From Diphasiastrum complanatum (taxonomy: Eukaryota; Streptophyta; Lycopodiopsida; Lycopodiales; Lycopodiaceae): a stretch of 64,000 nt of DNA. Numbering within the stretch: position 1 is the first letter of the stretch; every line of letters starts with the position of its first letter. Under the pieces are notes generated by a model, which saw only the letters and a program-made list of their open reading frames with translations, was not told where the DNA came from and did no database searches. Positions 4,403 through 59,840 of the stretch are shown piece by piece. The position numbers and the translations under genes were made by a program. The stretch covers positions 1 through 64,000 of the forward strand of contig MU831934.1 in the NCBI GenBank assembly GCA_029204225.1, written 5' to 3'.

Positions 4403-4453
<51 letters not shown>

Positions 4454-5700: not shown

Positions 5701-5839
5701 CAGGAATACTTTCTACTTTCTTAAAATTTAAAATGCATGTTTAGTATGCTAACATAGTAAGGATGAACGGAGATTGAAAACTCCAAGACCACTTCATCCT
5801 TTCCCATTCCTGAATCCCCAAAGAAACATTTTTGCTATG

Positions 5840-6555: not shown

Positions 6556-6651
6556 GAAGACTCAGAGGAGTCTAGAAAGAAAGCTTATTTCTAAGTCTAT
6601 AATGAAGGCTCAGAGGAGTCTATAAAGAAGGCTTATTACTAAGTCTATAAT
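6556..6651. repeat. 48-bp tandem duplication
   Basis: Two adjacent 48-bp units beginning 'gaag[a/g]ctcagaggagtct' and ending 'taagtctataat', with a few mismatches. They lie in the AT-rich tract after the second Ty3 repeat. A looser pair of 'gtacaggtactcatgaaagtg'-like segments lies just upstream (about 6403 and 6491). Confidence 0.85.
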
Positions 6652-7715: not shown

Positions 7716-7826
7716 GTAATTCTTGAATCCTGGGGGTTGATCCAGATAGACCTCTTCGTCTAGCTTGCCATGCAAGAAGGTTGTCTTCTCGTCCACAATG
7801 TGGATCATAAGGTCATAAGCTGCTGC
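7716..7826 (-). pseudogene. Copia A reverse transcriptase stub
   Basis: On the minus strand, HIVDEKTTFLHGKLDEE followed by VYLDQPPGF is the well known copia RT block (VDVKTAFLNG...MEQPPGF). It joins integrase directly through an internal deletion and ends in a stop just after PPGFKNY. Confidence 0.85.
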
Positions 7827-8492: not shown

Positions 8493-8504
8493 GTCATCAT
8501 GAGT

Positions 8505-9152
8505 CTAATGCACCTGATCTGCAGGTAGGCGTACCTTCAAATGGTATATATTTCCTTTCCTTCTGTCTTGAGCGATCAATGTACTGGTACTGGCATCAAC
8601 CACGTTGCATGCTTCGTTAGAAAACGTCACAAGTATTCCTGCATATGCTATTCTTGCTATAGAAAGCAAGTCTTGTTGCAGTGTAGGCACGAACAGAATG
8701 TCTTCGAGTCGTCTGTCTCTGTCGTTGGTGTTGAGCCATAGTGAACCAATACTGTTCACTTGATGTTTAGATCCATCTCCAAGAACTATTAATCTTGAAG
8801 GATCTGCACTTCTGAAATCAGACATAATTCGTCTTGATGTCACGAAGTGCGAGGTGGCTCCTGAATCTAGAATCACCTCATGTGTGTCAGATGTTGATGC
8901 TGCACACACGTCTTCACAGATATAGGCGGTCGAACAAATTCTGTTCGTTCTTTCTTCGCCCATTTTTGAGCTCTTGGGATCCTCGACATAGGATGAACTA
9001 TTGTTGTTCTCCTGTCTGTTCTGTGCTGATTTGTTCCTCGGATTTTGGCGGCAATCCACGACTACATGACCTTTCTTGTGGCAGTGGATACACTCAATCT
9101 TTGGACTGAGCCAGCATGTATCAACTGTATGCCCGTCTCTTCTGCATCTCAT
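8505..9152 (-). pseudogene. Copia A zinc knuckle and protease
   Basis: This 215-codon segment carries two CCHC-like knuckles (CRRDGHTVDTC, then CIHCHKKGHVVVDC), a linker, and the retroviral-type aspartic protease with the active-site motif VILDSGATSHF. It continues into the region before integrase (LFVPTLQQDLLSIARI). It is the gag-to-pol junction of copia A and stays open for its full length, but is separated from gag and integrase by frame changes. Confidence 0.85.
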
Positions 9153-9584
9153 GCAAGTCTTCTTGTCTGCACCTTGCTGTTTCGACCTCCCTTTACTCTT
9201 CTAGTTGCCTTTGCTGGTCCCCTCTGCTTGCTGATCATGATCCTGCCTCTAATTCGACTCCCTATTAGGCTTAAATTGTTTCTTGGATTTTTCTTTGTTG
9301 TCGTAGAGGGCTTGGTCAGAACCATCTTTGTGATCAAGATGTTCTCTCGCCTCGACTTCCTCTCGAATCTCGACAATTGCCTTTTCGAGGTTCATGGCAG
9401 GATCTTTCGTGAGCAAGGTCTTTGTCGTCTAGAATGATTTAGGTAAGGCTCTCAACAAGTATGTGAGCTACTTCTCAGCTGAGACTGCGTTCTCTGCTCC
9501 AGAGTTATATAGTGATAGAAATAGATCCTTCATCTTTCTTACGAAAGAAGTGAGGTCTTTCCCATCCCACTATAGATTCTTCAG

Positions 9585-18919: not shown

Positions 18920-19665
18920 TGTAGTGGGTTTCTTTCCTTGCCTAACCTGAATCCAAGATCTAGTCAATCTAGCATCAAAGAGACGAAGTTAGTTGTCACG
19001 CATAGGTTCGTTCCCATGAGAGCGATAGTATAGTTCAGATTTCAACATGAATGGAGGATCTAACACTAACATCCATTAACACTAAGCATTAACACTACAT
19101 CCATTAACCCTAAATCAACAACAATGATAGAAACTTACTCTTCTCTCTCTCCCTTTCTCTCTCACAAAAATCATAAGAAATAGCAATCTCAATAATGATC
19201 AAATCCAACAATTAGCAAAATCCAAAGAAAGCATGAGAAATGGAGGAAAAGAAAGGAAGAGCAAGGACATTCATCAATCCATTTCTAAAGAGAACCAATC
19301 TGCTTTATTGAAATGAGAAAATGAACATCAGGAATAACTCGAGTTGGTCTCTTTTTATAGTAGAGAGGAGGACCCTGGCCTCTGAATCCTATTGGTCCAG
19401 TCTTGCCTCTCTTTTATTCAAATTTAAAAAAGTGTGAAAACCATCAGAACTGGAGGGAAACCCAACGTTATTCACTAACTTGACAATTAGGCCCTATGAC
19501 ATTAAAAGTCCCGCAAAAAGGCCTAAAGTCCTTTTATTGACTTTTAACTAATCAATCAAATAACTATGTGATCATTGGGTTGGAGTTACACATGCAGGGT
19601 GCCAAATCCCTCTCACTTATTAACTAGGGTTAGGGTTGCCTTGGGATCCGCAAACCCTCCAACAG
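18920..19665 (-). repeat. Ty3 3' LTR
   Basis: Starts tgtagtgggtttc and ends accctccaaca on the + strand. It is nearly identical to 29255-30001. The minus-strand purine-rich stretch just outside (TTGGTGGGAGATAC, 19666-19680) is the likely polypurine tract. Confidence 0.95.
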
Positions 19666-29254: not shown

Positions 29255-30001
29255 TGTAGTGGGTTTCTTTCCTTGCCTAACTTGAATCCAAGATCTAGTC
29301 AATTTAGCATCAAAGAGACGAAGTTAGTTGTCACGCGTAGGTTCGTTCCCATGAGAGCGATAGTATAGTTCAGATTTCAACATGAATGGAGGATCTAACA
29401 CTAACATCCATTAACACTAAGCATTAACACTACATCCATTAACCCTAAATCAACAACAATGATAGAAACTTACTCTTCTCTCTCTCCCTTTCTCTCTCAC
29501 AAAAAGCATAAGAAATAGCAATCCCAATAATGATCAAATCCAACAATTAGCAAAATCCAAAGAAAGCATGAGAAATGGAGGAAAAGAAAGGAAGAGCAAG
29601 GACATTCATCAATCCATTTCTAAAGAGGACCAATCTGCTTTATTGAAATGAGGAAATGAACATCAGGAATAACTCGAGTTGGTCCCTTTTTATAGTAGAG
29701 AGGAGGACCCTGGCCTCTGAATCCTATTGGTCCAGTCTTGCCTCTCTTTTTATTCAAATTTAAAAAAATTGTGGGAACCATCAAAATTGGCGGGAGACCC
29801 AACTTTATTCACTAACTTGACAATTAGGCCCTGCGACATTAAAAGTCCCGCAAAAAGGCCTAAAGTCCTTTTATTGACTTTTAACTAATCAATCAAATAA
29901 CTATGTGATCATTGGGTTGGACTTACACACGCAGGGTGCCAGATCCCTCTCACTTATTAACTAGGGTTAGAGTTGCCTTGGGATCCGCAAACCCTCCAAC
30001 A
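29255..30001 (-). repeat. Ty3 5' LTR
   Basis: Partner of 18920-19665: same TG...CA ends, 747 bp, about two dozen differences by eye. Followed by the right copy of AAGTA. Confidence 0.95.
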
Positions 30002-36042: not shown

Positions 36043-38407
36043 ATGTGGAACGATCAACACCTTCTTGCTCCAGGGCAGCTTTCGATCGGACAAAGAATTT
36101 CAAAGTCTGCACCATGTTCTCCTTTGAAACCTCTCATCCCGAAAAGAATTTCGTCTCGTCCAGATGCGTTTCACGTCATACACAAAGTACCTGTCGGGGA
36201 TTCTCCATACGTGAAGGCAAAACACGTTCAGGTTAGAATCATCACTCTCCCTTTACATCAACTATCAGGCAGCGAACAAGAAAGCAGTATCGGTTGTCCA
36301 GTTTTTATGCGATTGAATTTTCGTCGTGATCTGCTAAACGGATTTGTTTGTTGCTGGTAGCTGGTGGATAAGGATCCGGAGAAGGCTATTGCCTTGTTTT
36401 GGGCTGCCATCAACGCGGGAGATAGGGTGGACAGTGCACTAAAAGACATGGCCATTGTCATGAAGCAGCAGAACCGACCAGAAGAAGCCATAGAAGCTAT
36501 TAAGTCTCTTCGCAGTCGCTGCTCTGATCAAGCACAGGAATCGCTGGATAATGTCTTACTTGACTTGTACAAGGTAGAAACTAAGAACACTGGCGCTACG
36601 CACATGTTCGTGAAGAGTTACATTTTATGGTTGAAATGGTTGTATTACAGCAAAGATCTTCGATGTATATGATATTTGACTTATTCACTTGTTCAATTGA
36701 TTATTACAGAGGTGCGGACGATTGGATGATCAAATAGCTTTGCTCAAGCACAAGCTGAACCTTATTCACCAGGGATTGGCATTCAATGGCAAGCGAACTA
36801 AGACAGCTCGCTCCCAAGGCAAAAAGTTTCAAGTATCTATCGAGCAGGAAGCCACTCGTCTCCTGGTAATTTATCAGATTCAACGTGTTTGTTTCTTTTT
36901 GTTTCTTTTCGATACTTTCAGTTGCTTTTAACGAGATTTTTAACCGGTGTTTTTATCATAATTCTGGTTTCTTTATGTACAGGGGAACCTAGGATGGGCC
37001 TATATGCAACAAGCAAACTACGAGGCTGCAGAAGCAGTTTACAGGTATATATGGTCGATAAAACATGATCTGTTCCATCTCTTCCTGGGAATGTATTGTC
37101 TTTGAAATGTGCTTTAGTCCTTCGGCTGATACATCTTTGCTCGTTTTTGCAGGAAAGCATTGTCAATCGAGCCCGACAACAATAAAGTGTGCAACCTAGG
37201 GATTTGTCTCATGAAACAAGGCAGGCTAGAAGAGGCAAAAGCCATGTTGCAAAGTGTCACTCCGGCCTGCTCAGACAGCCGCTGGGGATCGGACTCCCAT
37301 CTGAAGTCCTATGAACGCGCTCAGCAGATGCTGCTCGAGATGGAAAATTCCAGCAATTCAGCCGTCGATTCTCTACAAACCAATTCGTCCCTTGCTTGGT
37401 CCTCGCTCTCCGGGTTGCCTGTGCAGATTCCCCTCGAACGTCATCTGAACCTTAAAAACCACGATGTACCGTTTCCTTCAAATTCTATCCAATCTTCTAC
37501 TTTGGATCATTCCATGTTCTCGACTTACGTCGATGCCTGGGATGATGAAGAAGGAGACAACGCCTCTGCAGATGAAAACATCAATACCAACAACATACAA
37601 GGAAATGTTAATCCGGTTCAAGAGCCGCAGATACATTGGAATCGAGAGCATAAACTGGAGAACGTGCGTAAAGAGAAGTGGGAAGATCAGAATCAGATTT
37701 CTCACACTGCTCGATGTCCTCCGTTGCAGCAACAAAATAGCCATGACCTCACTGAGGCTTCTCCCTTCACCTTGCACGCTATGCCAAAGTCCACACTGCA
37801 ATCAAAAACGGATAATAATGTTTTCTCTCACTCAGCAACGGCAACAGGATTTCGAGACAACCAAGAAAGGCTACCTCTGGCTTTTGACAGGACAAACAAC
37901 TACTCGGTCAAAGCAGCCAACGCATCTCCTCTTGTTCTGTCAGGGCTTTCAAAAGGTAACTCCAAAACGCTCCCAGTAAAACCAGAGCACTGGAGAGCCT
38001 CAACACTCCAGGAAAACAAACCATCACCAAGAAGGATTCTCACTTTCGACTCCAGCAATACCAGTTTTCCTATTAATGCAGTCGGTGGGACTAATTCAAC
38101 TGGAGGTATGACTAGCACCGCTCTTGTTGAGGACGTGATGGAGGAGATGACCAAAAAAAGCTTGGAAGATCTTGGATTTGTTGATACTTCTGACGCAGAT
38201 ATGGCATTCCCGCAACCCATTTCAGTGGGTATCACTGCGAAGACCGTAGACAACGATCTACAGAGCCTGTCAAGCGATCTGCTTCTCGCCTCACAGACAT
38301 CTTCAATGGATCTTGAGAGGAAATACCGCCGAAGGCTGCAGGTTTTCCTGGATATGACCATGCCAGCTAGCCAGCCACCAGCAAGTATAAATTTTCCAAT
38401 CTTGTAA
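36043..38407 (+). CDS. TPR protein, MS5/TDM/SDI (POLLENLESS3-like) family
   Basis: Five exons with GT-AG introns: 36043-36231, 36361-36573, 36710-36865, 36983-37044 and 37153-38407, giving 624 residues. The family signature is at residues 40-63 (DAFHVIHKVPVGDSPYVKAK), followed by TPR-like helices (LFWAAINAGDRVDSALKDM; GNLGWAYMQQANYEAAEAV; NLGICLMKQGRLEEAKAML) to about residue 260. The remaining ~360 residues are low-complexity, rich in Ser, Asn and Gln, with an acidic patch (DAWDDEEGDN) and a conserved-looking end (RKYRRRLQVF). In Arabidopsis, relatives act in meiotic exit (MS5/TDM1) or in the sulphur-deficiency response (SDI). The long tail is more like the MS5/TDM side, but I cannot choose. 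ATG at 36043 is the nearest in-frame start to the signature. A GTAAGT overlaps the stop region, so one more exon cannot be excluded. Confidence 0.85.
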
Positions 38408-41935: not shown

Positions 41936-43511
41936 ATGGCTAGGTTGTACGTACATGCATGCAAAAGCTGGAGTCAAGATAGGAGAGCCAGTTGTGCTAG
42001 AAGTTGTGTCTTCCTTCAGATCAACCCCCTCGATTCACAACTCTCTCCCGACACCCTGGCTTGGATGCACCTCATCCATCTTTCGCCACCTCGCCAAGGC
42101 TCCTCACCTCCCACGTCTCCATCCATTTTCTAAACCGTCTTCCAATTTCCCACCATTCCTGTCATCCCCTCTTTCGAGCAGTCCGTTCTTACTCCTCTCC
42201 ACACCACTTCTCTCACACCTCCCACCTCTCCCCTGAAAGCTACCGAGGGCTACAACCGTTGCCTGATGACGCATTTGTGCAAACAACGTATGCAACATCG
42301 CCTGATCATGCTGACCCCACCGCATCTGACGGCATGCAATCACTAGAAAAGCTGATTGAAGACGGCGACACAATATTGGTCGTCCGGGCTACATCACAAC
42401 AAGCCCCTACTAGCACCACCATATCGGCCGGTCCCACAGACATTTCAACAACCTACCAAATCTTGGGCACATTTGTCTAGGAGGCGGTAGCCACAAGAAC
42501 AAAAATTGGACGACCGAGTATTGGAGTTGGCCACAAGTAATACCCAGCTGCGGGCATAAATCGGCCAACTCCAGCAAGATCTGCTGATTGCCCAACAACA
42601 CGAGCAAGTAGAGAAATCCGAAGTGCAGAAACTCAAAAATCATGAAGCCAATCTCCAAGGGTACATCACGGCCTTCTCAAAGTCTACCATGGATGCTCAG
42701 TTGAAGCTCCAAGAGATCCAGCAGTAGCTCACACAACATCTCACTCCACTCCAGACACAACTCTCAATGTTGGAAATAGAAAACCTATGCATGGGAGCGG
42801 AAGTGACAACCCTATAAGCAGAAAAGATGGCCTGGCTCACACAACCCACACCTACCAATAGACCACTCAACCAAGCTGAGGTGGATCTCCTCACAAAGTA
42901 GGTGTAGGTGGACAACGACAAATTTGCCAAGTACTAGGCTAAGTTTGACAATTACCGACACGAGGCAATGCAGGAGTTAGCACAGGCAAAGAATGCCTTG
43001 AAGGCGTGCCAGAAGCACATGGAGCAGCAGCCTCAACTGGCCCCTGTTGTGATTCCACCGCACCAATCAAATACATTGCCACCCCCAGCTCCAACCAAGA
43101 CAAGGGAAAACAAGCAGAGGGACTAAATGTACAAGATCAAGGCTCAGATGTAGCCGACGCTAGTGATCAAGACCTAAGCCAAGGAATAGATCTGAGCCAA
43201 AGCCAAGAAGAGTGCCAAGCCTCCACAACTCAAGGCTCGCGATCCGTATCTGCCAGCTGTGTTTTTCGTCGAGCGAAGTCCATGGAAAAGAAAATTAACG
43301 AATTCTTAGCCAAACATCTCCATGACTCCTTACGAGGCGGCTAGCAGATATCTTTTTATGCCCAAACAATCAAGGGCAACGAGCTGAAAGCTCTTCCCAC
43401 ACTCCAATCACAAATAGAGTGGCGCCAACAACTCTTCGAGCGAGACCCTACGGCCATCAGGGCCTATGTGACAAGTCCACGCCAATTGAGGATGAATGTG
43501 CATTTCCTCCC
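41936..43511 (+). pseudogene. Coiled-coil protein pseudogene, 5' part
   Basis: A decayed + strand reading frame. The early part (42004-42477) is Pro/Ser-rich. From about 42500, in another frame, comes a strong coiled coil (QKLDDRVLELATSNTQL; IGQLQQDLLIAQQHEQVEK; MDAQLKLQEIQQ). The next open part (43006-43344) is Gln/Ser/Asp-rich and ends in KSMEKKINEFLAKHL. At least five TAG codons stand where a Gln would continue the coil. The last words before the copia insertion (RQLRMNVHFLP) continue in frame at 47813. I do not recognise the family. It could be an accessory ORF of a Ty3 element or a host gene. Confidence 0.5.
43507..43511. repeat. Target site duplication CTCCC (left)
   Basis: Exact repeat of 47808-47812, flanking the copia element at 43512-47807. 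Confidence 0.92.
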
Positions 43512-44309
43512 TGTCGTAAAACGGTGGTCATGAGCGCAACAGAGGCTCGGTTACTCAGAGCGTTGGCTTGTAGGAACGGAAACGCAACAGTTAGTAGCAG
43601 AAATATTCAAGTAGAAAAATTCATACAGTTTGCACAAACTAACGACACAGTAGTGAGACAACAATTCCACTCTGATAAAAATCAACAATGAGTACAATGG
43701 CTTGAAGTAATAACTTTAGCTTGTTGAGCGTGATAACGCTGGCTACATATAACTTTGATTGGAGTAGAAATTCCCAAAAATTAACACTTACATAGCTTGA
43801 TTCAACTAATATAGAGATTTACAAGAGAGAAAATATCTTACAAGCCTTTAAGGCTATTTATGCCAATTTTTGCATATGTACAAAAGTTGGTAACCGTCAA
43901 CCGCCTTTGGGATATTTGTTTGTCCAGCTGTTTTTAGGGTTACTCATAAGTTGATGAAGTCGGTCAACCAAAAATACGAGAAAAAACAAAAAAGGCAAAA
44001 GTGCCTTAAAAATGATTTCTAAGGTATTCTGGCCACTTGGCCAATGTGTCGCATTTTTTTGCTAAGGAGCGAAAAAGACGAAGGTGCCTTTAAAAATGAT
44101 TTCCAAGGTATTATGGCCACTTGGCCAGAGTGTCGCATTTTTTGCTAAGGAGCGAAAAAGGCAAAGGTGTCTTAAAATGATTTCTAAGGCATAGAAAATC
44201 TCAAAGGAAAAAAATGTGAAGGCTTAAAAATATGTTGTCGGCCTTTGGTTTTTCAGGATGCTCATTACTTGAACAATTTGTTTGAAGGCTGAGCATAAGA
44301 AATCTAACA
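43512..44309 (-). repeat. 3' LTR of the inverted-pol copia element
   Basis: Starts tgtcgtaaaacggtgg and ends gaaatctaaca. Nearly colinear with 47011-47807, sharing internal triplicate-like blocks around 'atttctaaggtatt.tggccacttggcca'. Confidence 0.93.
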
Positions 44310-44320
44310 CTCCCCCTTAA
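44310..44320 (-). other. Polypurine tract
   Basis: Minus strand TTAAGGGGGAG immediately before the LTR start TGTTAGATTTC. Confidence 0.88.
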
Positions 44321-47000: not shown

Positions 47001-47010
47001 TTTGATACCA
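47001..47010 (-). other. Primer binding site
   Basis: Minus strand TGGTATCAAA, directly abutting the 5' LTR. One or two bases differ from the usual TGGTATCAGAGC. Confidence 0.8.
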
Positions 47011-47807
47011 TGTCGAAAAACGGTGGTCGTGAGCGCAGCGGAGGCTCGATTACTCAGAGCTTTGGCTTGTAGGAACGGAAACGCAGTAGTTAGCAGCAAA
47101 AATATTCAAGTAGAAGAATTCATACAGTTTGCACAAACGAACGACGCAGTAGTGAGACAAAAATTGCACTCTGATAAAAAAACAATGGCTTGAAGTAATA
47201 ACTTTAGCTTGTTGAGCATGATAACGCTGGCTACAGATAACTCTGATTGGAAAAGAAATTCTCAAAAATTAACACTTACATAGTTTGATTCAGCTAATAT
47301 AGAGATTTACAAGAGAGAAAATATCTTACAAGCCTTTAAGGCTATTTATGCTAGTCTTTGCATATGTACAAAAGTTGGTAACCGTCAATCGCCTTTGGGA
47401 TATTTGTTTGTCCAGCTGTTTTTAGGGCTACTCATAAGTTGACGAAGTTGATCAACCAAAAATGCGGAGAAAAATGAAAAAGACGAAAGTGCCTTGAAAA
47501 TGATTTCTAAGGTATTTTGGCCACTTGGCCAGTGTGTCGCATTTTTTGCTAAGGAGCAAAAAAGACGAAAAAGTCGAAGGTGCCTTTAAAAATGATTTCC
47601 AAGGTATTCTCGCCATTTGGCCAGTGTGTCGCATTTTTTGCTAAGGAGCGAAAAAGACGAAGGTGTCATAAAATGATTTCTAAGGCATAGAAAATCTCAA
47701 AGGAAAAAAAAAAGTGAAGTCCTAAAAATATGTTGTTGACCTTTGGTTTTTCAGGATGCTCATTACTTGAACGATTTGTTTTAAGGTTGAGCATAAGAAA
47801 TCTAACA
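47011..47807 (-). repeat. 5' LTR of the inverted-pol copia element
   Basis: Partner of 43512-44309. About the same length, a few percent different, with the same TG...CA ends. Followed by CTCCC. Confidence 0.93.
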
Positions 47808-47921
47808 CTCCCCTACACACACGATGATCTAAATGGGTGTACTGCGGCACTCCCTTGGACCAGATCACGATCCATAATTGCAATTGGCCAAGTATTCCTT
47901 CTGAGTACGGATGAACCTTAA
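47808..47921 (+). pseudogene. Coiled-coil protein pseudogene, 3' end, with target duplication
   Basis: The right copy of CTCCC (47808-47812) is followed by an open frame (YTHDDLNGCTAALPW ... STDEP, stop at 47919-47921) that continues exactly the frame broken at 43511. It is therefore the last exon portion of the disrupted pseudogene. Confidence 0.7.
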
Positions 47922-48155: not shown

Positions 48156-49867
48156 TAATCTTCAACAAGTTCAAAGACAAAGTATAAGTTTTCCAAAACG
48201 TTTGATGAAATTGACAATTTGTGTTTGGTACAATCTAAAGCATCTTATTAAATGATTGAAAATAGCCAAGAAACAAGAAAAACTATTAGTCCAATGCATT
48301 TATTCCGAGATCAAGCCGTGCATCCCGATACTAGAAGTGGCTTATTTGTCGGTCAAATTTGGGTGAAGTATGAGTAGTACAACTATATACAAAAAATCTT
48401 TGAAATTTGATTTGATTGACGAAAGTGGCAATGATACAATCACTCTTTGTTGACAAAAATTATTTTCACAAGTATATATATTTGGAATTATTTTTATTGT
48501 ATTTCAATTAGAGATTTTGGGGTGGTTGATAAAAATTTGAAGGGTGAAGGAAGAATCTCAAATTATACTCTCATTTTACAACCATCTACAACAATTCAAC
48601 ACTTATTTGAAATTTTTTTCCAAGAATAATCTTCAAAAGTTGTAGGAAAATTGCAAGAAAATCATACAACAGAATCTTGGAAGAAATGAGCTCGCATTGC
48701 TAGCAACATGAGCTATTACAATAATTGAAGTTGGACAACATTATTCATACTAACTCTTAGGCCAAAATGGGCCAATAATTAAAATGGAAAATGTATACAT
48801 GTTAAGCTAATGTAGAGGGGCTTTTGGCCTAAATGATTATGAAGGTTGAGTACGTGTTTGTATAAGATTTTATGCGAATTAATATTCTTGGTGGGGTCAT
48901 TGTAAGCGATTGCAATTTGCATGTAAGGTCAAAATGTTAAAAAGGTCCTATAGTATATTTAGCAATGTAAAGATTGATGCATTAGGATTAAGAAAAAGTC
49001 ATTTTCGGGTTTGTTATTAAGGCAGTCGAAGAGTCATTCTCAATTATTAACATGATGACCAAAAAAAAGAGAAATGACTTGGAGACCCATTTTTTTTAAT
49101 TTTTTTTAATTTTTTTTTTAAAGTAAAATTTAAAATGCTTCAAATAAATATATTGTAATGTTAAAAAAATGTTGTATTTTGCAAGAAAATAATTCAAGCT
49201 ACAAAAATTTGGTCAATAGATTTTCATAAATAACTTAAAATTAGCTTATACCAAATAATAATACTATTCAAAATAAAATCATTAGATACACAACCACTAA
49301 AATAACTAGAAAATACTTTTTGTTTATTTAAAACAAAAGTTATAGCTTTTTTTTTTTGAAATTTTAAAAGTTTTTTAAATTATAATTCTTGTATCAAAAA
49401 AAAATATTTTTTAAATTATGATAAAAATTTTAATCAATATTTTTAAAAGTTTTAATTTTTTAAAATATCTACTTATATCTACATAAGCTCATTGAATATT
49501 TAAACATTAGATAAATGCAAATGAAATTACTTTACAATAATCGAGATTAAATGATTTGCAAAAATATTTAAATCACCCTAAAAAAATCTTTTCATTTTTT
49601 AAAATTTTCAACAATATTTTTTTTTTACAAAAAATACTATAAAAACACATCCAGAATAAAAATATTATAAACTTGACAAATCGTTATAATTTTAATTTTT
49701 GATAATGATTATCAATGTTAAAAATTTTAAAATATTTCAAATTCTTAATTTTAAACCATTAAAAAACAAATTTAAGAACATTAAATCAATCAAAAAGATT
49801 TCAAAACACAATACATCAAAAAATATAAACGCAATTATTTTTCAAAACAAAAGAGAATTTTTTATTC
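48156..49867. other. AT-rich intergenic tract, no gene recognised
   Basis: Very AT-rich, with long T and A runs (49085-49130, 49355-49420, 49615-49640). No domain is recognised in the short frames. It adjoins the 3' end of the methyltransferase remnant. Confidence 0.5.
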
Positions 49868-50520
49868 TCAAAAATCATCGAGGTCATTTACATCTTTTTC
49901 TTTTTCTTGAGTAGCTGCTGTACTTTCAAGTGGCACCTCTTCTACAATTTTCTCGACTACTGTAACCACATTGTAATCTTGAACCAAGACATCAGCAAAT
50001 TCTCCTGTGTCGCCTACTTTTTCGCTAGCAGGAGGCTAAGGTTCCTTGGACAAGGGAATTATTGTATCCTCGCTATCTAAACTCTTTCTCATCTCAGATA
50101 GTTCATCTAGCAAAATTGAAAGAGATTTCATTCTCATTTTTACAAAATCAACTAAATTAGTATCTAGATCTACTATAGCAACATGTCTGCCTTTCTGAAC
50201 AGCACATGCGCTTGTAGTGCCGCTACAGCTAAATAAATCCAAAACCCAATCAGCTGGGTGTGAAAAAATGTCAATTAAATGATTAATTAATTGTTGTGGC
50301 TTTTGGTAGGGACAAGCCACGAAACCCGTCATTGGATTTTTTAATTTTTTCGTCACGGTTGGATACTGGAACAAGTTTGCAAAACTTGTCAGTTTGGAAG
50401 TGCTGTAATGAAGCATCGAACGTTTGCCATCCAAAGAATAATAACCGATGGTTATGTATTTTATTTCATTACAAGTAAAATATTTTATGTATGTCGTACT
50501 CCTCTCGAGTTCTTGAAATT
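49868..50520 (-). pseudogene. DNA N4/N6-methyltransferase, C-terminal part
   Basis: The minus-strand frame shows the C-terminal half of a beta-class DNA methyltransferase: CPYQKPQQLINHLIDIF (motif X-like), then ADWVLDLFSCSGTTSACAV (motif I, AdoMet binding; FSGSGTT in the family), then GRHVAIVDLD. In beta-class enzymes motif I follows the catalytic DPPY/SPPW motif, which should lie in upstream exons and is not seen. After a TAG at 50036-50038 (Gln expected) the frame runs 55 codons to an acidic end (VNDLDDF, stop 49868-49870). The 5' side is cut by copia C; the frame resumes at 55099, after a 3' splice site. N4-cytosine methyltransferases are known from the liverwort Marchantia. Whether this is an orthologue or a transposon-borne copy is open. 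Confidence 0.72.
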
Positions 50521-51223
50521 TGTGAAAGTACTGTACTTTAGGACCATAAATGGATCTACAAAAGATCCACAAGAGTGATTGGATGCTTGCTTAACAATCT
50601 ATCAAAAAACTAGACACAAAAAAGTTGATCTAGATTGGCAATTTAACAAACAACAAGCATTAACAATCAAAAGCATTGATAAACATTGAGATCCGAGCCC
50701 ACACGTGTGTACTATAGGCTATACTACGGCCTTCAACCTGAGAAACAAGTAGAAATTGATTTGGTTTCATTTGGATCACAAAAACTCAATGTACATAGTG
50801 AACTAGCTTGAGATTGCCAATAAGCTCCAAAAAAAATTTCTATCTTCTCACTATGGAGAGAGGGAATACATAGCAAATTCGACTTCCTTCTTGAAGTTAG
50901 GTGGATTTCCAGCATGTAATAAGGAAGTTAACTCACTCTCCTTGACCTAAAATGAAACCCTAGTCTATTTCCTAGAGTTATGCTTGGTAGGTAGCTAGTT
51001 GGTCAAATTTTCACCTTAAACTTAGGTGTAGGTCCTATAAAGTAGGTATGACCACCAAATAGACATGACCAACTCTCTTGACTTGACCTAACCTACATTA
51101 GGATGGGTTTCCCATGTGGCATCATGGCCTCACATGTGTGGGACCCACTTGTGTACACAATTTACACTATTCTACATGGTTTTTGATCAAGCTAGATTTG
51201 CCAATTTTTGGCAATTCTTCACA
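50521..51223 (-). repeat. Copia C 3' LTR
   Basis: Matches 54396-55098 over its full length. Ends tgtgaaagtactg and gcaattcttcaca. The minus-strand sequence just outside is GAGGAGGAG, the polypurine tract. Confidence 0.97.
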
Positions 51224-51433
51224 CTCCTCCTCAAATTTAGCTTGATCTATTTACAATTCTCTTGATAGATGAATGAAATCTTTTAGAAGTGTCTAAAAAA
51301 TCCAGCTACAAACAAGGAACTTTTGAGACTCCAATAGAGAATGATGTCCATGAAGGACCTTTCACCACCTCTTAGAGGATCCCTTACAAGATGTTCCATA
51401 AATGTGTCTATATACATGTAGCACACTTCAAAA

Positions 51434-53614
51434 CTAAACATCATGCCAAGCCATGGATTCCAAGGCATTTTGTGCACTTGAAGATACATCAATTAAAATA
51501 TTAAGTGCATAAATAATGTTGCCAAAGACAACTTGTCTTGCTTGATCCATATGATTGAGCCTAGATGGCTCCATCTTGATACTCAAGGTTTTTCTTGGAG
51601 TCCTCGGGTCTTGAGCTTGCTCCTCCACTTGACTTGACTCCAGACCATCAATGAATTTAATAAGGTGTTGATCCAAAGGTGCTTCTTCAAGTTTACAAAT
51701 CTTCCACTCTTGAAAGATCACATTTCCACCATTGACAAATTCTTTGGTTGAAAACAAGTAGATTCTACAATCTCTACTTGAAGAGCAAAACACTACCATT
51801 ATTCCTATCATTGAAATAGGATAATCTTTGGTCCTTACATTGGAATGATCATGCACAAAGCATGTGGACCCAAAGATTTCCAATACAAATGATATTTCAT
51901 CTTTTATGACACTATTCAAACTATTACAAAAATAGTTATCCAATGAAATTGCTTTATCAACAACAAATGTAGATTTCAAAGCATCACATTTCATTGTCTT
52001 TTCATACAAAGTAATAAACACCATGAATCTTAAAGGTAAGAAACAAGTCACCTCATGTCTACTAATACTTTCCAAAAAGTATTCAGAAATAGTAGACTCT
52101 CCAATGCTCACCACCCTTGCAAGATGCACACTTGAATGGACAATTTGCATGCAATTTGATGACTCGGACATTGTCATTGAGGACTCCCTTGGAACTCTCA
52201 TGCTTTGAGGCTGATCCTCAAAATCTTCCTCCTTTTGATGCTCCTCCTCAATGCAAGCAAGATCACACTTTGCCAAGATCTCCTCTTGAGTGATCTCCTC
52301 CTTTGCCAAGCTCATTCTTTCAAAAGCAACACTAGCTTCCAACTTAAACAATCTTCCATGTTTAAATCCCTTTGCAATGCAAACATCATTCTTCAAGATG
52401 AAGCAAACACCATGCTGAAAGTGGACATCCAAACCACTTTCTAAGAGTAGACCAACACTAAGCATATTCTTGGTGATTGATGGTACATAAAGGACATTTT
52501 CTAGATCCATGCATTTTGAGGATTCTAGACACAAAGAGATGGTGCCAACACCATTTGTCCTACACTCTTCATCATTTGCAGTAAAGCCAAACTTTTTAGC
52601 ATCATTGAATGAGTGTAATGTTGAGAAAAAGTCCTTTTCACAAGACACGTGGGAGCTAGCCCCACTGTCAATCCACCAATTGTCTCTTGAATTGCTATTG
52701 CTTGTTGGTGAGGATGTAGATGCCATCAAGAATACATCTACTTCATCCTCCTCCCCCTCCTTTGCAAGGTTTCCTTGTTTGTCCTCCTCCACTTGTGCTC
52801 TTAGCCTCTTGTAACATTTAGATGCATAATGCCCCTTCTTTCCACAAAAGAAGCATTTTTGCTTTGACTTGTCCTTTGAGCTTGATGCATCATCCTCTTC
52901 TTTGGCCTCCTTTGGATGCTTCTTCTTTCCATTGGTCTTCTTTTTGCCCTTGAATGAGAAATTGGCTTTCTCATCACCATCCTGCAACGACAAGGAACTC
53001 ATCCTAGATTTTGCATGGAGCATCTTACACTCTTCAGCCACTAATACACTGTGAAGTTTTTCTATAGTTGGCAAAGTGTCTTGGATGGCAAAACTTTGGA
53101 CCAAATTTGCAAAGTCATCTCCTAGACCATTAAGGACAATTTGTACAAGCTCTCCATCATGAATCTTCTCTCCAATGGAAGCCAACTCCCTATTTAGAGA
53201 CTTGATTCTGAGTACATAATCCTGTGCACTCTCCTCACTTCTCCTCATGCTTTGCAAAATTTGATTTCTAAGCATAAGAACTCTAGAAGTGTTGCTAGAC
53301 TCGTAGATTGATTTTAAAGACTCCCAATCCTCTTTAGCATTAGTACAAGCTGATACTTCTCTCAACAAATCATTGCTCACATTCATCTTCACACAATGAA
53401 GTGCAAGCCTAGATCTCTTCTTGTATCTAGCTAACTCCTGTGCACCTAGAGGTTCATCTTCATCTTCAATCAAGAACTCATAAAGGTCTTGGAGCACTAA
53501 GAGTGACTCCATTCTAACCTTCCAAATAGCATAATTTGTAGAATTCAACCTCTCACTAGCTTCTAGAAGGTATGCTCCAGCAGATCCCATCTTACTAGTG
53601 ACTTCTACAAACAA
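51434..53614 (-). CDS. Copia C gag-protease ORF with degenerate integrase tail
   Basis: A 726-codon uninterrupted frame. Residues ~1-220: gag (LNSTNYAIWKVRMESLL; YKKRSRLALHCVKMNVSN; SEESAQDYVLRIK). Around 260: knuckle CFFCGKKGHYASKC. Around 315: protease DNWWIDSGASSHVS, with an intact Asp. After about 440 the sequence loses the integrase HHCC and DDE motifs; only distant echoes of the integrase C-terminus remain (LEIFGSTCFVHDHSN; FSTKEFVNGGNVIF). It could supply its own capsid and protease but needs integrase and RT in trans. It stays open through the degenerate tail, which is notable. A second in-frame ATG (MGSAGAYLLEASERLN) is the more gag-like start. Confidence 0.85.
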   Translation of the reverse strand: MFVEVTSKMGSAGAYLLEASERLNSTNYAIWKVRMESLLVLQDLYEFLIEDEDEPLGAQELARYKKRSRLALHCVKMNVSNDLLREVSACTNAKEDWESLKSIYESSNTSRVLMLRNQILQSMRRSEESAQDYVLRIKSLNRELASIGEKIHDGELVQIVLNGLGDDFANLVQSFAIQDTLPTIEKLHSVLVAEECKMLHAKSRMSSLSLQDGDEKANFSFKGKKKTNGKKKHPKEAKEEDDASSSKDKSKQKCFFCGKKGHYASKCYKRLRAQVEEDKQGNLAKEGEEDEVDVFLMASTSSPTSNSNSRDNWWIDSGASSHVSCEKDFFSTLHSFNDAKKFGFTANDEECRTNGVGTISLCLESSKCMDLENVLYVPSITKNMLSVGLLLESGLDVHFQHGVCFILKNDVCIAKGFKHGRLFKLEASVAFERMSLAKEEITQEEILAKCDLACIEEEHQKEEDFEDQPQSMRVPRESSMTMSESSNCMQIVHSSVHLARVVSIGESTISEYFLESISRHEVTCFLPLRFMVFITLYEKTMKCDALKSTFVVDKAISLDNYFCNSLNSVIKDEISFVLEIFGSTCFVHDHSNVRTKDYPISMIGIMVVFCSSSRDCRIYLFSTKEFVNGGNVIFQEWKICKLEEAPLDQHLIKFIDGLESSQVEEQAQDPRTPRKTLSIKMEPSRLNHMDQARQVVFGNIIYALNILIDVSSSAQNALESMAWHDV

Positions 53615-53962
53615 GAAATAGATTTGATTGACTTGAAACTCACAAAGGTCTCACACTTGCAGTGTTTCACTCAAATTTGATTTCTAATCCAACAAATGGA
53701 CTTATAAGCACAGTTCTATCACTCCCTCACAAAGCTGGAATGAAGATAAGATGAAGTGAAAACTACTTTCAAACAAATCTTGCCAAGAAATGGATTTGAT
53801 TGTCTCTAGAAACTCACTAAGGTCTCTCTCTTGTAGTTTTTCACTCAAATTAGATTTCTAATCCAACAAATGGACTTATAATCTCAATTCCAGCACTCCC
53901 TCACAAAGTTGGAATGAAGATAAGATGATGTGAAATCTACTTACAATCAAATCTTGCCAAAT
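53612..53962. repeat. 174-bp tandem duplication in copia C leader
   Basis: Two adjacent copies carry the same words (gatttgattg, ctaatccaacaaatggactt, ccctcacaaag.tggaatga, caaatcttgcca) 174 bases apart, with moderate divergence. It lies between the gag start and the primer site. A related scrap is at 2091-2150. Confidence 0.85.
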
Positions 53963-54380
53963 TTGGCTATTTTTGGACAAAAAAATGACTTAATCTCTTT
54001 CTTCCTTCTTGGTGTACTTTCAAGACCTGTTTTTAACCTTAATAGGACTTGGACTCAGCCTAGATTAATTAGATTCCATGAAACAAATTCAAATCTAATC
54101 AATGGCAAATGATCTTGGTAGATTATCCTAGAATCTCCACCAAAAATTACACCAATAGCTCACAAATTGAATTTTTTTGGATCAAATGAATACCATGCAT
54201 TAAATGCAGGTTTAGAGGTGCCCACACATGTGGACAGTACGGATTTGGACCCCTACCAAGTTTGGGATCAAATCTCCTCACCAAAATCAAGATTCTAACT
54301 TGCCCTCTCAATACTAGCTTTTAGCACCAAAACTTGCTAAAAATGGATTTGCATTAGATCAATGGCTTATGCTCTTGTAC

Positions 54381-54395
54381 TTGGCTCTGATACCA
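54381..54395 (-). other. Copia C primer binding site
   Basis: Minus strand TGGTATCAGAGCCAA, adjoining the 5' LTR with no gap. Confidence 0.95.
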
Positions 54396-55098
54396 TGTGA
54401 AAGTACTGTACTTTAGGACCATAAATGGATCTACAAAAGATCCACAAGAGTGATTGGATGTTTGCTTAACAATCTATCAAAAAACTAGACACAAAAAAGT
54501 TGATCTAGATTGGCAATTTAACAAACAACAAGCATTAACAATCAAAAGCATTGATAAACATTGAAATCCGAGACCACACGTGTGTACTACAGGCTGTAGT
54601 ACGGCCTTCAACCTGAGAAACAAGTAGAAATTGATTTGGTTTCATTTGGATCACAAAAACTCAATGAACATAGTGAACTAGCTTGAGATTGCCAATAAGC
54701 TCCAAAAAAATTTTCTATCTTCTCACTATGGAGAGAGGGAATACATAGCAAATTCGACTTCCTTCTTGAAGTTAGGTGGATTTCCAGCATGTAATAAGGA
54801 AGTTAACTCACTCTCCTTGACCTAAAATGAAACCCTAGTCTATTTCCTAGAGTTATGCTTGGTAGGTAGCTAGTTGGTCAAATTTTCACCTTAAAGTTAG
54901 GTGTAGGTCCTATAAAGTAGGGATGACCACCAAATAGACATGACCAACTTTCTTGACTTGACCTAACCTACATTAGGATGGGTTTCCCATGTGGCATCAT
55001 GGCCTCACATGTGTGGGACCCACTTGTGTACACAATTTACACTATTCTACATGGTTTTTGATCAAGCTAGATTTGTCAATTTTTGGCAATTCTTCACA
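54396..55098 (-). repeat. Copia C 5' LTR
   Basis: Partner of 50521-51223, same length and ends, about a dozen mismatches by eye. Confidence 0.97.
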
Positions 55099-55250
55099 AC
55101 ATTGAGCTTGTACCTGACATGAAACATTACAAGTAAAATAAATTTAAAATTTTAACTTTAAAATAAAAATTTTAAAATAAATTATGAATTAAAATACAAA
55201 TTAATAATTCAGAAAAAACTTACCACACAGCTTACAAAGACAGATCATAA
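55099..55250 (-). pseudogene. Methyltransferase upstream exon fragments and intron
   Basis: On the minus strand, sequence after a 3' splice site (CATGTCAG, about 55118) reads VQAQ and continues in the frame of the methyltransferase part at 50520 once the copia insertion is removed. Further upstream an AT-rich intron of about 107 bases is bounded by a good 5' site, GTAAGT (about 55225). The exon before that is short of open frame (a stop 8 codons upstream), so the gene was already broken or its structure is incomplete here. Confidence 0.45.
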
Positions 55251-55800
55251 GTTGAAGGTAGAGTTCAACAATAAGAAGTGTCAAATCAAGGACGTGAAAC
55301 AGGGAGCAACAAGCCTAGAAAGTAACTGGTTGATTAAAATTTCCAGTGGCTAACATGTCTTAAATATTGTTTGGCAGCATCCTTAGAGTTAGGATTGACC
55401 CAAGAGTAGGTTTAGGGTCAAGGTCGGCGTGAGGTGAGGTGATTCGTGACAACTCAGTCCCGATACAAGCTGTGAGTTGTGGCAACTCGGTCCTGACGCA
55501 AGCTGGAGGTCTCGAGGGTCCTATGAGGCGGGGGTCTCGAAAAGAAAATTATTTAAGGACCATAGTCCAAGCATAACTCACCTCATCTGCGAATTCAGAA
55601 GCACACATGCTGCCAGAGCTCTCGCTACGACAAAGTCACGGCTTTCTATAGGATATTGCATACGTGCTCACTCACAGATTTTTTGACGGTAAGATTATTG
55701 TCATTTTTTAACTTTGTTCTATGCTTAGCATGGGTATTAAATTATTGCATTAGTAAATATTCATGTTTTAATTAGTATTCATCTTCTTCAAACTAGGGTG
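55251..55800. other. Intergenic, divergent side of methyltransferase remnant
   Basis: Somewhat GC-richer sequence with two similar segments 'gaggt.ctcgagg/ggggtctcgaaa' and 'caactcagtcc.gat/caactcggtcctga' near 55440-55540. No coding sequence recognised. Confidence 0.45.
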
Positions 55801-56243
55801 ACCTATGCTCAACATAGGTGGTTGCACGAGTCCTCTCTACTAACCTATGCCGAGCATAGATTGTGTTCGGGTCCTTAGTAACAACCTTTGCTCAACATAG
55901 GAAGCCGGCGGGATTTTTCTATTCTTACCTACTTGCTAACCTATGCTGAGCATAGGTTGCATCTCTGGTCCTCTTCTAACCTATGCTCAACATAGGTTAG
56001 CAAGCAGATTGCGAATACATCCTATGCTGAGCATAGGTGGGACTAGAGCGCGCGAGTAACGACCTATGTTGAGCATAGGTTGCATCTCTGGTCCTCTTCT
56101 AACCTATGCTCAGCATAGGTCATCACTCGCATGCTCTAGTCCCAACTATGCTCAGCATAGGATGTCTTCGCAATCTACTTGCTAACCTATACTGAGCATA
56201 GGTTAGAAGAGGACTAAAGATGCAACCTATGCTCAACATAGGT
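55801..56243. repeat. Array of eleven 19-bp palindromes, ~41-bp period
   Basis: Consensus ACCTATGCTSAGCATAGGT, a perfect palindrome around the central base. Copies start at 55801, 55843, 55884, 55939, 55979, 56020, 56062, 56102, 56144, 56185 and 56225. Start-to-start distances are 42, 41, 55, 40, 41, 42, 40, 42, 41 and 40. Most copies have 0-3 differences. Spacers of 21-23 bases fall mainly into three types that recur, some in reverse: A (55958, 56081, reversed 56204), B (55998, reversed 56163), C (56039, reversed 56121). The palindromes are thus units of a larger inverted repeat. It lies between the divergent methyltransferase and DUF7869-type genes, where binding sites for a dimeric protein would make sense. 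Confidence 0.95.
55939..56243. repeat. 305-bp imperfect palindrome within the array
   Basis: Arms 55939-56080 and 56102-56243 (142 bases each) are reverse complements with few mismatches, around a 21-base centre (56081-56101). Palindromes 4-7 pair with 11-8, and spacers A, B, C pair with their reversed copies. Confidence 0.9.
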
Positions 56244-56473
56244 CGCTACTCGTGTTTTTCCTGTTTTACAAGACTTAGTCTGAGAAAAGTGATACTTTTG
56301 AGATGTTTTTGTAAGAAAATGTGTTAAATTTTTAGTTTTGATTTTTAAAGAATTTTTCACAAAAACTGCTTGTCTTATTAAAGTTTTCAGTATTTTCATT
56401 CGGGTAGTGATTTAAATTTTTTTAAAGAATCTTTTTCTTTGCGGATTTTCAATTGTCTTTGATAATTTTCGAA

Positions 56474-58672
56474 ATGTCGAGGATATCTTTCAAAATTTTG
56501 GATAAACCTCAAGATATTCCACTGAAAGATATAAAGAAAGTCATGTATTACTTCACTAGAGGGGTCAACAACACAAAGATATTTTCACTTGTCGGATAAT
56601 TTTACAAAATTCAAAATATTTTTGATGTACAAAAAGTTTGCCAAACAAAAAATATTCCCTATTTGAGTTACTCATATTTTCTTAGAATTTGAAAAAGAGA
56701 TTTTGGACTGGTAAAGATTTCCAAAAAATCACGAATGACAGTATGCTCCACTTGCGAGTTGTTAAAGTCTGCAAAACAACTTGCAAAGACCAATGACGAG
56801 AAAGTTAAATATTAATCAAATTTGTCATTCATTTTAATACTTTTTGTTTTGAAAAAATTTATGTTGCAGTCTTTTTGAATATCATTATGGTATGATCTTT
56901 ATTCTATTAAATAAGTGAATCATTGTATTTTCAATGGATGCTGCAAAAGCTCTTCAACTGCACAAAGATCAACAAACAGTTGAAAGACAAAAATTGGCCA
57001 AGCATCGAAAGAAATGTTTGGAATGTCCACAAAAATATCTGGGCCTTGTTATTGATGGCATGGATCAGAAGAAAACTATGTTGTTCATTTTGTCAGACTG
57101 CCCAAAAATTTGAACGAGGCAGATTTTATTCAGGTTCATTTCGTTGAAGCACTTGTGTTTAATGGCACTTTGGAGTCCAAGGTCTTTTTTAATTATCCCA
57201 ATGTTCGAAATAATCCAAATTTGACGATCACCATTGTACATAAGATAATTTGCGAATTTGGTGAAACTCTTCCATAAATACTTTATTTGCAACTTGACAA
57301 CACTGCTAGGGAAAATAAAAACCAAATTGTTTTTGCATACTTGTCCATGCTAGTGGAGAAATTTTTTTCAAAAAAATAAAAATAGGATTTTTGTTGGTAG
57401 GATATACCCACGATCAAATTGGTCAAATGTTTAGTTGCTTTTCTAAGAGGTTGAGACGCAAAAAAGCATTTTCTTTACCAATACTTCAAAGCATTGTTGA
57501 GGAATCATATGTGCCAAAGCCAAACGTGTCATTAATCATACACACATATGATTTTTGTTATTATGTTAAGGCGTCCAATGAAACAGAGCGATGAGTAGCT
57601 AATATTAATGATATTAGCTTTCAGCACCAGTTTAAAATCAAATGTTACGAATCAGACATTATATTATTATGGGGCAAACTATTTTCAAATTCAGTTTCAT
57701 GGCTACCTCTTGAAGGAGTTCAATTTTTGCTTAACATTCCATCGACTCAAATCGAGCTTGCTGTGTTGTCTCCCTTGAAGTCCTTGCTAGAAGAACAAAA
57801 GGCGCAAAGAGAACATCGTGACATTGATCCATTTGCCTCATTAAATTTTTTGGAATCAAGTATTCAAGCAATTTATCATTTTTTTGATGAGTTTGATCAA
57901 CATTGGTGGATGGACTTTTTCGAGGAACAAAAAATCAGTTTGCTCAATTTCGAACATACATCAACAACTCAAGAATTTCATTGGCCTCATAAATTAGGAA
58001 CATCAACTACAACTGTCGAACCTTCAGATCTTTCTCGAAATAATGATTTCTTGCAGCTTGTGCAAGGTGAGGAACGTGAAATTTATGTGGGCTCAAGGAA
58101 GAATAGGCAAAGTGTAAAAGCTGCAAAATGAAATGGCGCGGTGATTTGAATGAAATCCAAATTGGAAGCCTTGTTGCACTTCTAGCTTTAGAAAACAATG
58201 AAGGACATCCATTTTGGATAGTACTTGATTTTATTCAAAATAGCAATCAAACAAAAGTACTACGTGTCCATTAGTTGTGCACCACTTCAACGAATGCTTT
58301 TTTGGGAAGGTACGAACTCGAAATGTTGCAAGTAGATCCAAAGGGCAAGAGAAAGAGATTGCCAAAAAAATCAACCAAGAGTCGATGATTTGAATCTACA
58401 GGATGTACATGTTTTGGCATTTAATTTTGAATTAACAATGACCAATCATCTACGAAAGTCCACTATATCTATATTGAAAGAATGACTTGGATTACTGGAA
58501 AAACCATCATCCTCCACTCGTCATCAACAGAGAAAAGCTGATTTACAAGGTTTTTTTGTCAACATTAGACGTGGATTCTTAGGAAGATATGCCAATTGAC
58601 TCTGATGAAGAAGACGGGTCTTCCACTTCATCAGCCGAAAACGAGAGTGTTGAGAATATGTCAAGTTCTTAA
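56474..58672 (+). pseudogene. DUF7869-type DDE-like gene, broken
   Basis: Read in several frames, the plus strand gives an ordered series: MSRISFKILDKPQD (56474), a C-x2-C stretch (VCSTCELLKSAKQLAKTNDE, about 56730-56810), YLGLVIDGMDQKKT (about 57040), VRNNPNLTITIVHKI (57210), LQLDNTARENKN (57290), LLVGYTHDQIGQMFSCFSKR (57390), a longer open part (57727-58131, LNIPSTQIELAVLSPLKSL), then GSLVALLALENNEGHPFW (58165) and an acidic C-terminus (DSDEEDGSSTSS, stop 58670). The words IDGMDQ, LDNTARENKN and GxTHDxID/GQMFS are what I remember of proteins annotated with DUF7869, likely RNase H-fold, transposase-related. Here frameshifts (about 57105, 57365, 58130) and stops make it a pseudogene. Intron positions are unresolved. 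Confidence 0.7.
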
Positions 58673-59840
58673 TTGAGAGGCATCAGTGAAAATTCCTTGG
58701 AAAATGTACTTTAAAAAAAAGAATGTGCAAATATAATTTAAGTTGTTATGTATTTCAATGGGATTTCGAGTTTCAAAAATCATTTGTTCTCTTGAATTAT
58801 TATTTCATGTGTAATTATGATGGTTTTATGAAGTTTGCAATAAAAAACTTGTAGTTCTTTATTTAAAATATGCATTTTTTGGCTTTTTTTTAAAAATAAA
58901 ATTTAGAGATTTACTAAAAAAATCCGTGATTTTGGCCTAAAACTAGGACTATTAAAAAACACCAAAAAAGATTACTCTTTTTGAGGTCAAAGTCCCAAAA
59001 CAAATGTCATTGTTTATTTACAAAAGTTTATTCGATCTCAAATGAACGCAAACAAGGCAGTTGCGGTACTTTGTGAGTTTACTAAGCTTGTTTGCAATAA
59101 GTTGAGTTTGTGTACAAATAGGACAACTTCAAGTGAAGTAGGGGTTGTTGCTGATTATTGAATGTCATATCATTTACATTTGATGATCAATAAAGGGGTG
59201 AGAGCCAATCGATTATGCGGTGTCTTACAGACTCTAATGTTTGCGTTGTAGGCAGCGATAAGCATATGCCTTGCTTAAGAACTTTTGAGCAGTAGCAACT
59301 AGAGGTTGTGTTGTACTCTGTATTGTGTTGAGCTGTAATAATTGTATCACGGATTTATTCCGATCATGGTGTTGTTGGGTTGTTGTAAATGATGTATTGT
59401 TTATTTCTACAATACTGTTTATTCCCATTGCATATTGTAGGATTATGTTTATATGTATTTGGCTACAACGGTGTATTCTAAAATCCTGTAATGGGTAAGG
59501 TAGTTAGGCGTTAATTTTATCCCCTAAAGGCTAATACTTTTTTGGTTCTGTTTGCTGGCTAGTTTCGGTTTGAGTTGTGAATCTGGATAGCAATAACTTC
59601 CAGTTGTGAGTTGAATTGTCATTGGTTGCTGAGAATTTGACACAGATGTCTTCTGGAGCCAGTACTTAAGATCCATGACGTACTAGAGTGCTTCGCAAAA
59701 TGGACGTCATATCTGTGGGACGCACTTGCGCGACGACGTGCCAATGCTTCCAGTGGAAGCGACGACCCGAATATGCACATACACCAATTTTTGGTTGTTT
59801 GTCAAGCAAATAAGGAAACATAAGATATTCGCATGTTGGA
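58673..59840. other. Intergenic, no gene recognised
   Basis: AT-rich to about 58990. The part from 59040 to 59640 has LTR-like composition and leads into a gag remnant, so it may include the LTR and leader of that element. No primer site or LTR limits were found. Confidence 0.4.

What the first reader, a model, noticed from the sequence alone, without database searches (positions are those of the whole stretch)
55801..56243. Eleven 19-bp palindromes at ~41-bp spacing between two divergent genes
The consensus ACCTATGCTSAGCATAGGT is self-complementary around one base. It recurs eleven times with steps of 40-42 bases (one of 55). Forty-one bases is close to four helical turns, so dimeric proteins bound at each copy would sit on the same face of the DNA. 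The sequence is not a plain tandem repeat: spacers differ in three recurring types. I know no plant satellite, MITE or promoter element of this design. A subterminal or centromere-like transposase-binding array, or an operator for a self-regulating DNA-binding protein, would fit.
Basis: partly seen in the sequence, partly recalled or inferred. Interest (0 to 1): 0.88.

Follow-up and report, generated by a model that had tools for sequence, protein, structure and literature searches.

The report
Mirrored palindrome array in plant transposon
A run of about twelve near-identical 19-letter palindromes turns out to be a built-in part of a high-copy plant jumping gene, sitting between its transposase-like gene and its own bacterial-type DNA-methylating enzyme gene, most likely as a shared control switch for both.

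Summary
Eleven 19-bp palindromes lie at 55801-56243, with a decayed twelfth at 55717. The genome holds 8291 copies with up to 3 mismatches, against 67 for the reversed control. Twelve of 20 loci sampled by palindrome share the spacing 84-42-41-54/55-40 wholly or nearly. Arrays belong to a DNA transposon (8.5 kb in L014) with short imperfect terminal repeats, an apparent 4-bp target duplication and at least 758 right ends. It carries two divergent genes: DUF7869, modelled as a transposase-like fold plus a BAH domain, and an N6/N4-type DNA methyltransferase. The mirrored array lies between their starts. Of 12 loci chosen by DUF7869 alone, 7 carry it. Outside a central CHG site, palindromes are 94.9% identical, spacers 76.8%; in a diverged copy 92.0% against 57.6%. 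Best reading: an operator array for a dimeric protein, probably element-encoded, controlling both genes, comparable to VANDAL/VANC motif arrays. The binding protein is inferred, not shown. The window copy is broken: array flipped, Copia inserted. Closest superfamily by anatomy: Sola, which could not be tested by sequence.

The parts
49045..49048 (.). apparent 4-bp target-site duplication, left copy (TATT)
   Evidence: right copy at 59015-59018
49049..59014 (.). whole (rearranged) transposon copy, ends AACATGATGACC... and ...GTCATTGTT, with a nested Copia element
   Evidence: outermost window matches to related loci begin at 49043-49049 and end at 59010-59019; termini read
49868..50520 (-). C-terminal part of the N6/N4-type DNA methyltransferase (PF01555), with an in-frame stop
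   Evidence: 69% identity to P0001
50521..55098 (-). nested Copia LTR retrotransposon; LTRs 50521-51223 and 54396-55098 (98.3% identical), TSD AAATT/ACATT (4 of 5); not part of the element
55099..55229 (-). continuation of the methyltransferase gene region beyond the Copia insertion (matches L014 8373-8235); 55230-55303 matched none of the 20 loci
55304..55716 (.). DUF7869-side flank of the array (promoter/leader side of the transposase-like gene in L014); flipped in the window
55717..55735 (.). degenerate twelfth palindrome
   Evidence: an outer copy 84 bp away recurs in other loci
55801..56243 (.). array of eleven 19-bp palindromes (55801, 55843, 55884, 55939, 55979, 56020, 56062, 56102, 56144, 56185, 56225)
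55939..56243 (.). inverted-repeat core of the array (143-nt arms, 91% complementary)
56474..56578 (+). start of methyltransferase exon 1 (MSRISFKILDKPQDIPLKDIKKVMYYFT...), travelling with the flipped array
   Evidence: read by eye beside L014 ORF 5406-5855; alignment
56579..58720 (+). DUF7869 transposase-like pseudogene (stops and frameshifts); 3' limit approximate
   Evidence: junction 56578|56579

Best explanation
The array is the central control region of a high-copy plant DNA transposon. In the most complete copy seen the transposase-like gene (DUF7869) runs one way and a DNA methyltransferase gene the other, and 12 or so palindromes lie between their starts. Each palindrome is, by inference, the binding site of a protein dimer. 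The mirror-symmetric layout gives both genes the same set of sites, so one bound protein can switch or protect both together. Shown: that array and genes form one element, gene order, mirror symmetry, recurring spacing, and constraint on palindromes more than on spacers. Inferred: that a protein binds, that it is element-encoded (DUF7869 or the methyltransferase product), and that the effect is joint regulation and/or protection from host silencing.
For: 8291 palindromes genome-wide against 67 control. The same spacing, whole or nearly, in 12 of 20 palindrome-selected loci. 15 of 20 of those loci carry the element's exons, 7 of them both genes. Selection by DUF7869 alone gives full arrays in 7 of 12 loci. 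In L014 the array (4709-5247) lies between the DUF7869 N-terminal ORF (4202-3372, minus) and the methyltransferase first ORF (5406-5855, plus). Palindrome positions outside the CHG site are 94.9% identical, spacers 76.8%, flanks 81.7 and 84.9%; diverged copy L017 against the rest: 92.0, 57.6, 73.1, 72.3%. C-to-T/G-to-A change at CHH-context positions: 3.1% in palindromes, 6.5% in spacers, 8.3% in flanks. Three more palindromes sit ahead of the methyltransferase ORF at 7781 in L014, in a probable intron, much as VANC motifs sit in VANDAL introns. DUF7869 models as a transposase/integrase-like fold.
Against: No protein-binding, expression or methylation data. Pfam found no DNA-binding domain in the L014 ORFs of either gene. 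Among five close L014-type copies the contrast is small: palindromes 95.3%, spacers 89.8%, flanks 92.9 and 91.9%. In the DUF7869-selected set the left flank is as conserved as the palindromes (89.2% against 86.1%; spacers 71.5%, right flank 81.9%). Five of 20 loci (L007, L009, L010, L023, L024) have palindromes without these genes, and 28-bp-step arrays (429 junctions) occur in another context. Five of 12 DUF7869 loci lack a full array. A host factor could be the binder.
Confidence: 0.62

Rival explanations
1. Host transcription-factor sites: the element hijacks a host dimeric factor, and the palindromes are host enhancer sites rather than targets of an element protein.
For: The same palindrome occurs in arrays of a different spacing (28 bp) and context (L007, L009), as expected if a host protein reads it; constraint data do not say who binds.
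Against: 15 of 20 sampled palindrome loci carry exons of this one element family. Single sites in host promoters were not looked for, so this is weak.
Confidence: 0.2
2. Transposition enhancer or pairing site: the transposase binds the internal array to assemble or align the ends, like the internal activator of phage Mu (recalled, not looked up), with regulation secondary.
For: The element encodes a transposase-like protein and the array is internal, between divergent genes.
Against: The array is 3.8 and 4.2 kb from the ends in L014, and no palindrome with up to 4 mismatches lies near those ends.
Confidence: 0.08
3. Hairpin/siRNA source: the inverted-repeat array is transcribed into a long hairpin that feeds small RNAs, with no protein binding.
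For: Inverted repeats of 80-88% identity over 242-414 bp in the five other copies tested.
Against: A hairpin needs pairing along the whole arm, yet spacers diverge faster than palindromes.
Confidence: 0.05
4. Neutral tandem repeat carried along by the transposon.
For: Array length and mirror centre vary between copies (window type against L014 type); among close copies palindromes and spacers differ little in conservation.
Against: Between L017 and the rest palindromes stay at 92.0% while spacers fall to 57.6%, and the spacing recurs.
Confidence: 0.05

Closest known systems
VANDAL21 motif arrays bound by VANC21 (Arabidopsis; PMC5735166, passages read)
   Same: Transposon-borne arrays of a short motif in non-coding regions, upstream of one gene and in introns of others; arrays gain and lose units; for the related VANC6 the motif is also found in an unrelated element.
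   Different: VANC21's motif YAGTATTAY is 9 bp and is arrayed in one orientation; here it is a 19-bp dyad in a mirror-symmetric array between two divergent genes, and the second gene is a DNA methyltransferase.
Spm/En (CACTA) TnpA-motif subterminal repeats (recalled; papers seen only in search listing)
   Same: Many copies of a short motif near the promoter of a plant transposon.
   Different: Spm arrays are subterminal and ends begin CACTA (recalled); here the array is central and the ends are AACAYGATGAC.
Sola superfamily (PMC10741241, passages read)
   Same: DDD-type transposase, 4-bp TSDs, TIRs from 11 bp, mostly 2-9 kb, found in moss and metazoans and not common in flowering plants.
   Different: No Sola sequence was available to compare; a methyltransferase partner and palindrome arrays are not mentioned in the passages read.
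Bacterial DNA methyltransferases RsrI, CcrM, MboII (beta class: recalled)
   Same: The element's enzyme matches them in the PDB sequence set (E 1e-6 to 4e-4) and PF01555.
   Different: Here an apparently intron-split gene of a plant transposon; only the C-terminal catalytic part matches.

Membership tests
Sola superfamily | DDD transposase | tested here: inconclusive
Sola superfamily | 4-bp target-site duplication | tested here: inconclusive
   Four copies with both ends: window and L005 TATT/TATT; L020 TCTA/TCCA; L014 unclear in a GA repeat
Sola superfamily | TIRs of 11 bp or more | tested here: inconclusive
   AACATGATGAC / AACACGATGAC, 10 of 11 matching
Sola superfamily | size mostly 2-9 kb | tested here: met
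   L014 copy 947-9491, 8.5 kb
Sola superfamily | sequence homology to Sola transposases | not testable with these tools
   no Sola reference sequence held
VANDAL (MULE) with VANC | MULE-type transposase or VANC gene | tested here: inconclusive
   Pfam finds DUF7869 and PF01555 only in the element's ORFs; VANC was not searched for as such
VANDAL (MULE) with VANC | clustered short motif in non-coding regions of the element | tested here: met
   but palindromic, not one-directional
CACTA (Spm/En) | termini CACTA and subterminal arrays (recalled) | tested here: not met
   ends AACAYGATGAC; array 3.8/4.2 kb from the ends in L014
CRISPR array | unique spacers between repeats | tested here: not met
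   spacers A, B, C recur in both orientations
ordinary satellite | tandem monomer arrays without link to genes | tested here: not met
   linked to the two-gene element in 15 of 20 and 7 of 12 loci; L007 does look satellite-like

The most novel reading that the evidence does not exclude
The array is the target of an element-encoded epigenetic switch: the transposase-like DUF7869 protein (catalytic domain plus BAH chromatin-reader domain) and/or the element's own bacterial-type DNA methyltransferase act on the mirrored palindromes to keep the divergent promoter open against host CG/CHG methylation, so that a plant transposon carries its own DNA-marking system together with its recognition array.
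Probability: 0.27. Interest if true: 0.88.

Novelty: new variant of a known kind. Interest (0 to 1): 0.7.

Why it matters
Motif arrays that let a plant transposon counter silencing are described for VANDALs (PMC5735166). This would be a different design: palindromic sites, mirrored around a divergent promoter, in an element that also carries a prokaryote-type DNA methyltransferase. It also gives DUF7869, which no paper in the held library names, a concrete role: a transposase-like protein with a BAH domain. The 19-mer is a ready probe for finding the binding protein.

Full report
1. The observation. Spacers 4-10 are of three types, each present in both orientations, so that 55939-56243 is a near-perfect inverted repeat. 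TRF sees a 123-bp higher-order unit, 3 x 41.

2. The window. Left of the array is a C-terminal DNA methyltransferase fragment (PF01555) on the minus strand, separated from the array by a Copia retrotransposon (50521-55098; LTRs 98.3% identical). Right of it is a DUF7869 (PF25273) pseudogene on the plus strand. DUF7869 relatives occur in a fern (Adiantum), a liverwort (Riccia), molluscs, sea urchins and cnidarians (97 proteins at E 0.001). No paper in the held library names DUF7869.

4. The genome. The own genome (1.74 Gb, 5176 contigs) holds 8291 palindromes with up to 3 mismatches against 67 for the reversed pattern. I fetched 20 loci of 10 kb at the first listed places, all on contig C1 and all chosen for an exact palindrome. 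With up to 4 mismatches, 8 of 20 show 84-42-41-(53 to 55)-(39 or 40) in one or the other direction (L006, L008, L011, L012, L013, L014, L015, L018); L017 and L022 lack only the outer copy; L010 and L021 differ in one step by 2-5 bp: 12 of 20 in all. L005, L016, L019 and L020 share parts of it. L007 and L009 have 28-bp steps, and L023 and L024 (near-duplicates) have 84-77-56. Five copies tested are mirror-symmetric (80-88% over 242-414 bp), but the mirror centre differs: spacer C in L014, spacer A in the window.

5. The element. The outermost window-to-locus alignments begin at 49043-49049 and end at 59010-59019. At those points are termini AACATGATGACC... and ...GTCATCGTGTT (GTCATTGTT in the window), an 11-bp inverted repeat with 10 matches. 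Four copies show both ends: TATT/TATT (window), TATT/TATT (L005), TCTA/TCCA (L020), and an unclear one inside a GA repeat (L014). The right terminus occurs 758 times with up to 3 mismatches against 0 control. In L014 (947-9491) DUF7869 runs leftwards (ORFs 4202-3372, 3360-2188, 2263-1109) and the methyltransferase runs rightwards in pieces from 5406 to 9030; the array at 4709-5247 lies between their starts. tblastn with these ORFs finds element exons in 15 of 20 loci: 7 with both genes (L005, L012, L013, L014, L018, L019, L020), 8 with one (L006, L008, L011, L015, L016, L017, L021, L022), and 5 with none (L007, L009, L010, L023, L024). A genome search with DUF7869 protein alone gives 158 match pieces, a lower bound. 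From these I picked 12 loci by hand for diversity and fetched 3.5 kb upstream of each gene: 7 have full arrays (7 or more palindromes), 3 have one or two, and 2 have none. So array and genes belong to one element.

6. The window copy. The segment 55304-56578, which carries the array and the start of methyltransferase exon 1, lies the other way round relative to both gene fragments when compared with L014, with junctions at 55304 and 56578|56579; 55230-55303 matched none of the 20 loci. The middle of the methyltransferase gene and the N-terminus of DUF7869 are missing.

7. Constraint. In the part of the array shared by both array types (19 rows), palindrome positions outside the three CHG-site positions are 94.9% identical pairwise, spacers 76.8%, flanks 81.7 and 84.9%; the CHG-site positions are only 74.3%. 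For the diverged copy L017 against the rest the figures are 92.0, 57.6, 73.1, 72.3 and 68.0%. Among five close L014-type copies the contrast is small: 95.3, 89.8, 92.9, 91.9 and 82.5%. In the DUF7869-selected set, over whole arrays, it is 86.1 against 71.5%, left flank 89.2, right flank 81.9; that comparison mixes array types. C-to-T/G-to-A decay is high at CG and CHG positions everywhere and low at CHH positions in palindromes (3.1% against 6.5 in spacers and 8.3 in flanks). I read this as host methylation decay of dead copies over a site that live lineages had to keep. The palindromes contain no CG positions. The central CTG/CAG explains the commonest palindrome variants.

8. Further sites. 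Three palindromes (steps 53 and 77-84) recur 1.2-2.4 kb from the main array on the methyltransferase side (L013, L014, L018, L020, L034). In L014 they lie between a possible donor and the acceptor ...TTTTCCTTTTCAG ahead of the next ORF (splice sites read by eye). Single copies or pairs about 70 bp apart lie near the DUF7869 start.

9. Phasing. Palindrome positions phase at 10.35-10.4 bp (R 0.87 for L014 and L028, 0.76 for the window; null 95% point 0.57 for random steps of 35-59), but R is 0.42-0.43 at 10.5. Variants with 34/30 or 34/26 steps (L020, L035, L036) and the 28-bp arrays do not fit, so the same-face idea is only partly supported.

10. How it most likely works. A dimeric protein bound to the array controls both genes at once. 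The element makes two candidate proteins; Pfam recognised no DNA-binding domain in either. The closest working analogy is VANC21 of VANDAL21, which binds clustered motifs upstream of one gene and in introns of others and relieves silencing (PMC5735166, passages). The present motif is palindromic and the array mirrored, unlike VANC21's one-directional motifs. By anatomy the element resembles the Sola superfamily (DDD transposase, 4-bp TSD, TIR from 11 bp, mostly 2-9 kb, in moss and metazoans; PMC10741241, passages), but no Sola sequence could be compared. The methyltransferase matches bacterial enzymes (PF01555; RsrI, CcrM and MboII in the PDB).

11. Limits. Loci L005-L024 come from the first listed exact matches on one large contig; L025-L036 were chosen by hand. 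Counts from the genome search are lower bounds where the tool says so; the methyltransferase and the left ends were not counted, because those requests did not complete. Copies are related by descent, so the Fisher value overstates independence. Binding, expression and methylation were not measured.

Noticed in passing
L007 4340-5135 and L009 5029-5164; genome-wide: The same palindrome at 28-bp steps (L009 26-32) with short spacers in a different context; 429 junctions CATAGGTCGAGAGAGGACCTATG with up to 2 mismatches, 0 in control. In L007 they sit in a ~190-bp tandem repeat. Owner unknown.
   Followed up: partly
L009 5122-6379 (minus): Two ORFs without a Pfam match above its cut-off beside the 28-bp-type palindromes; possibly the gene of another element.
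   Followed up: partly
L009 1838-2968 (plus): A 376-aa ORF with a core histone domain (PF00125, E 1.8e-22) followed by a long extension.
   Followed up: no
window 50521-55098: Copia element with LTRs 98.3% identical over 703 bp, inserted in the transposon.
   Followed up: yes
window 18920-19664 and 29255-30001; 43509-44315 and 47008-47813: Direct repeats, 96.8% and 89.9% identical, perhaps LTR pairs of further retrotransposons.
   Followed up: no
window 3516-4052 (minus) and 37130-38407 (plus): Probable host genes: a 2Fe-2S ferredoxin-type ORF (PF00111) and a TPR protein (PF14559).
   Followed up: no
window 55439-55505: A 33-bp unit in two tandem copies beside the array, in the DUF7869-side flank.
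   Followed up: no
protein P0023 (Adiantum nelumboides): Annotated protein that joins an rve integrase domain to DUF7869, perhaps a gene-model fusion.
   Followed up: no
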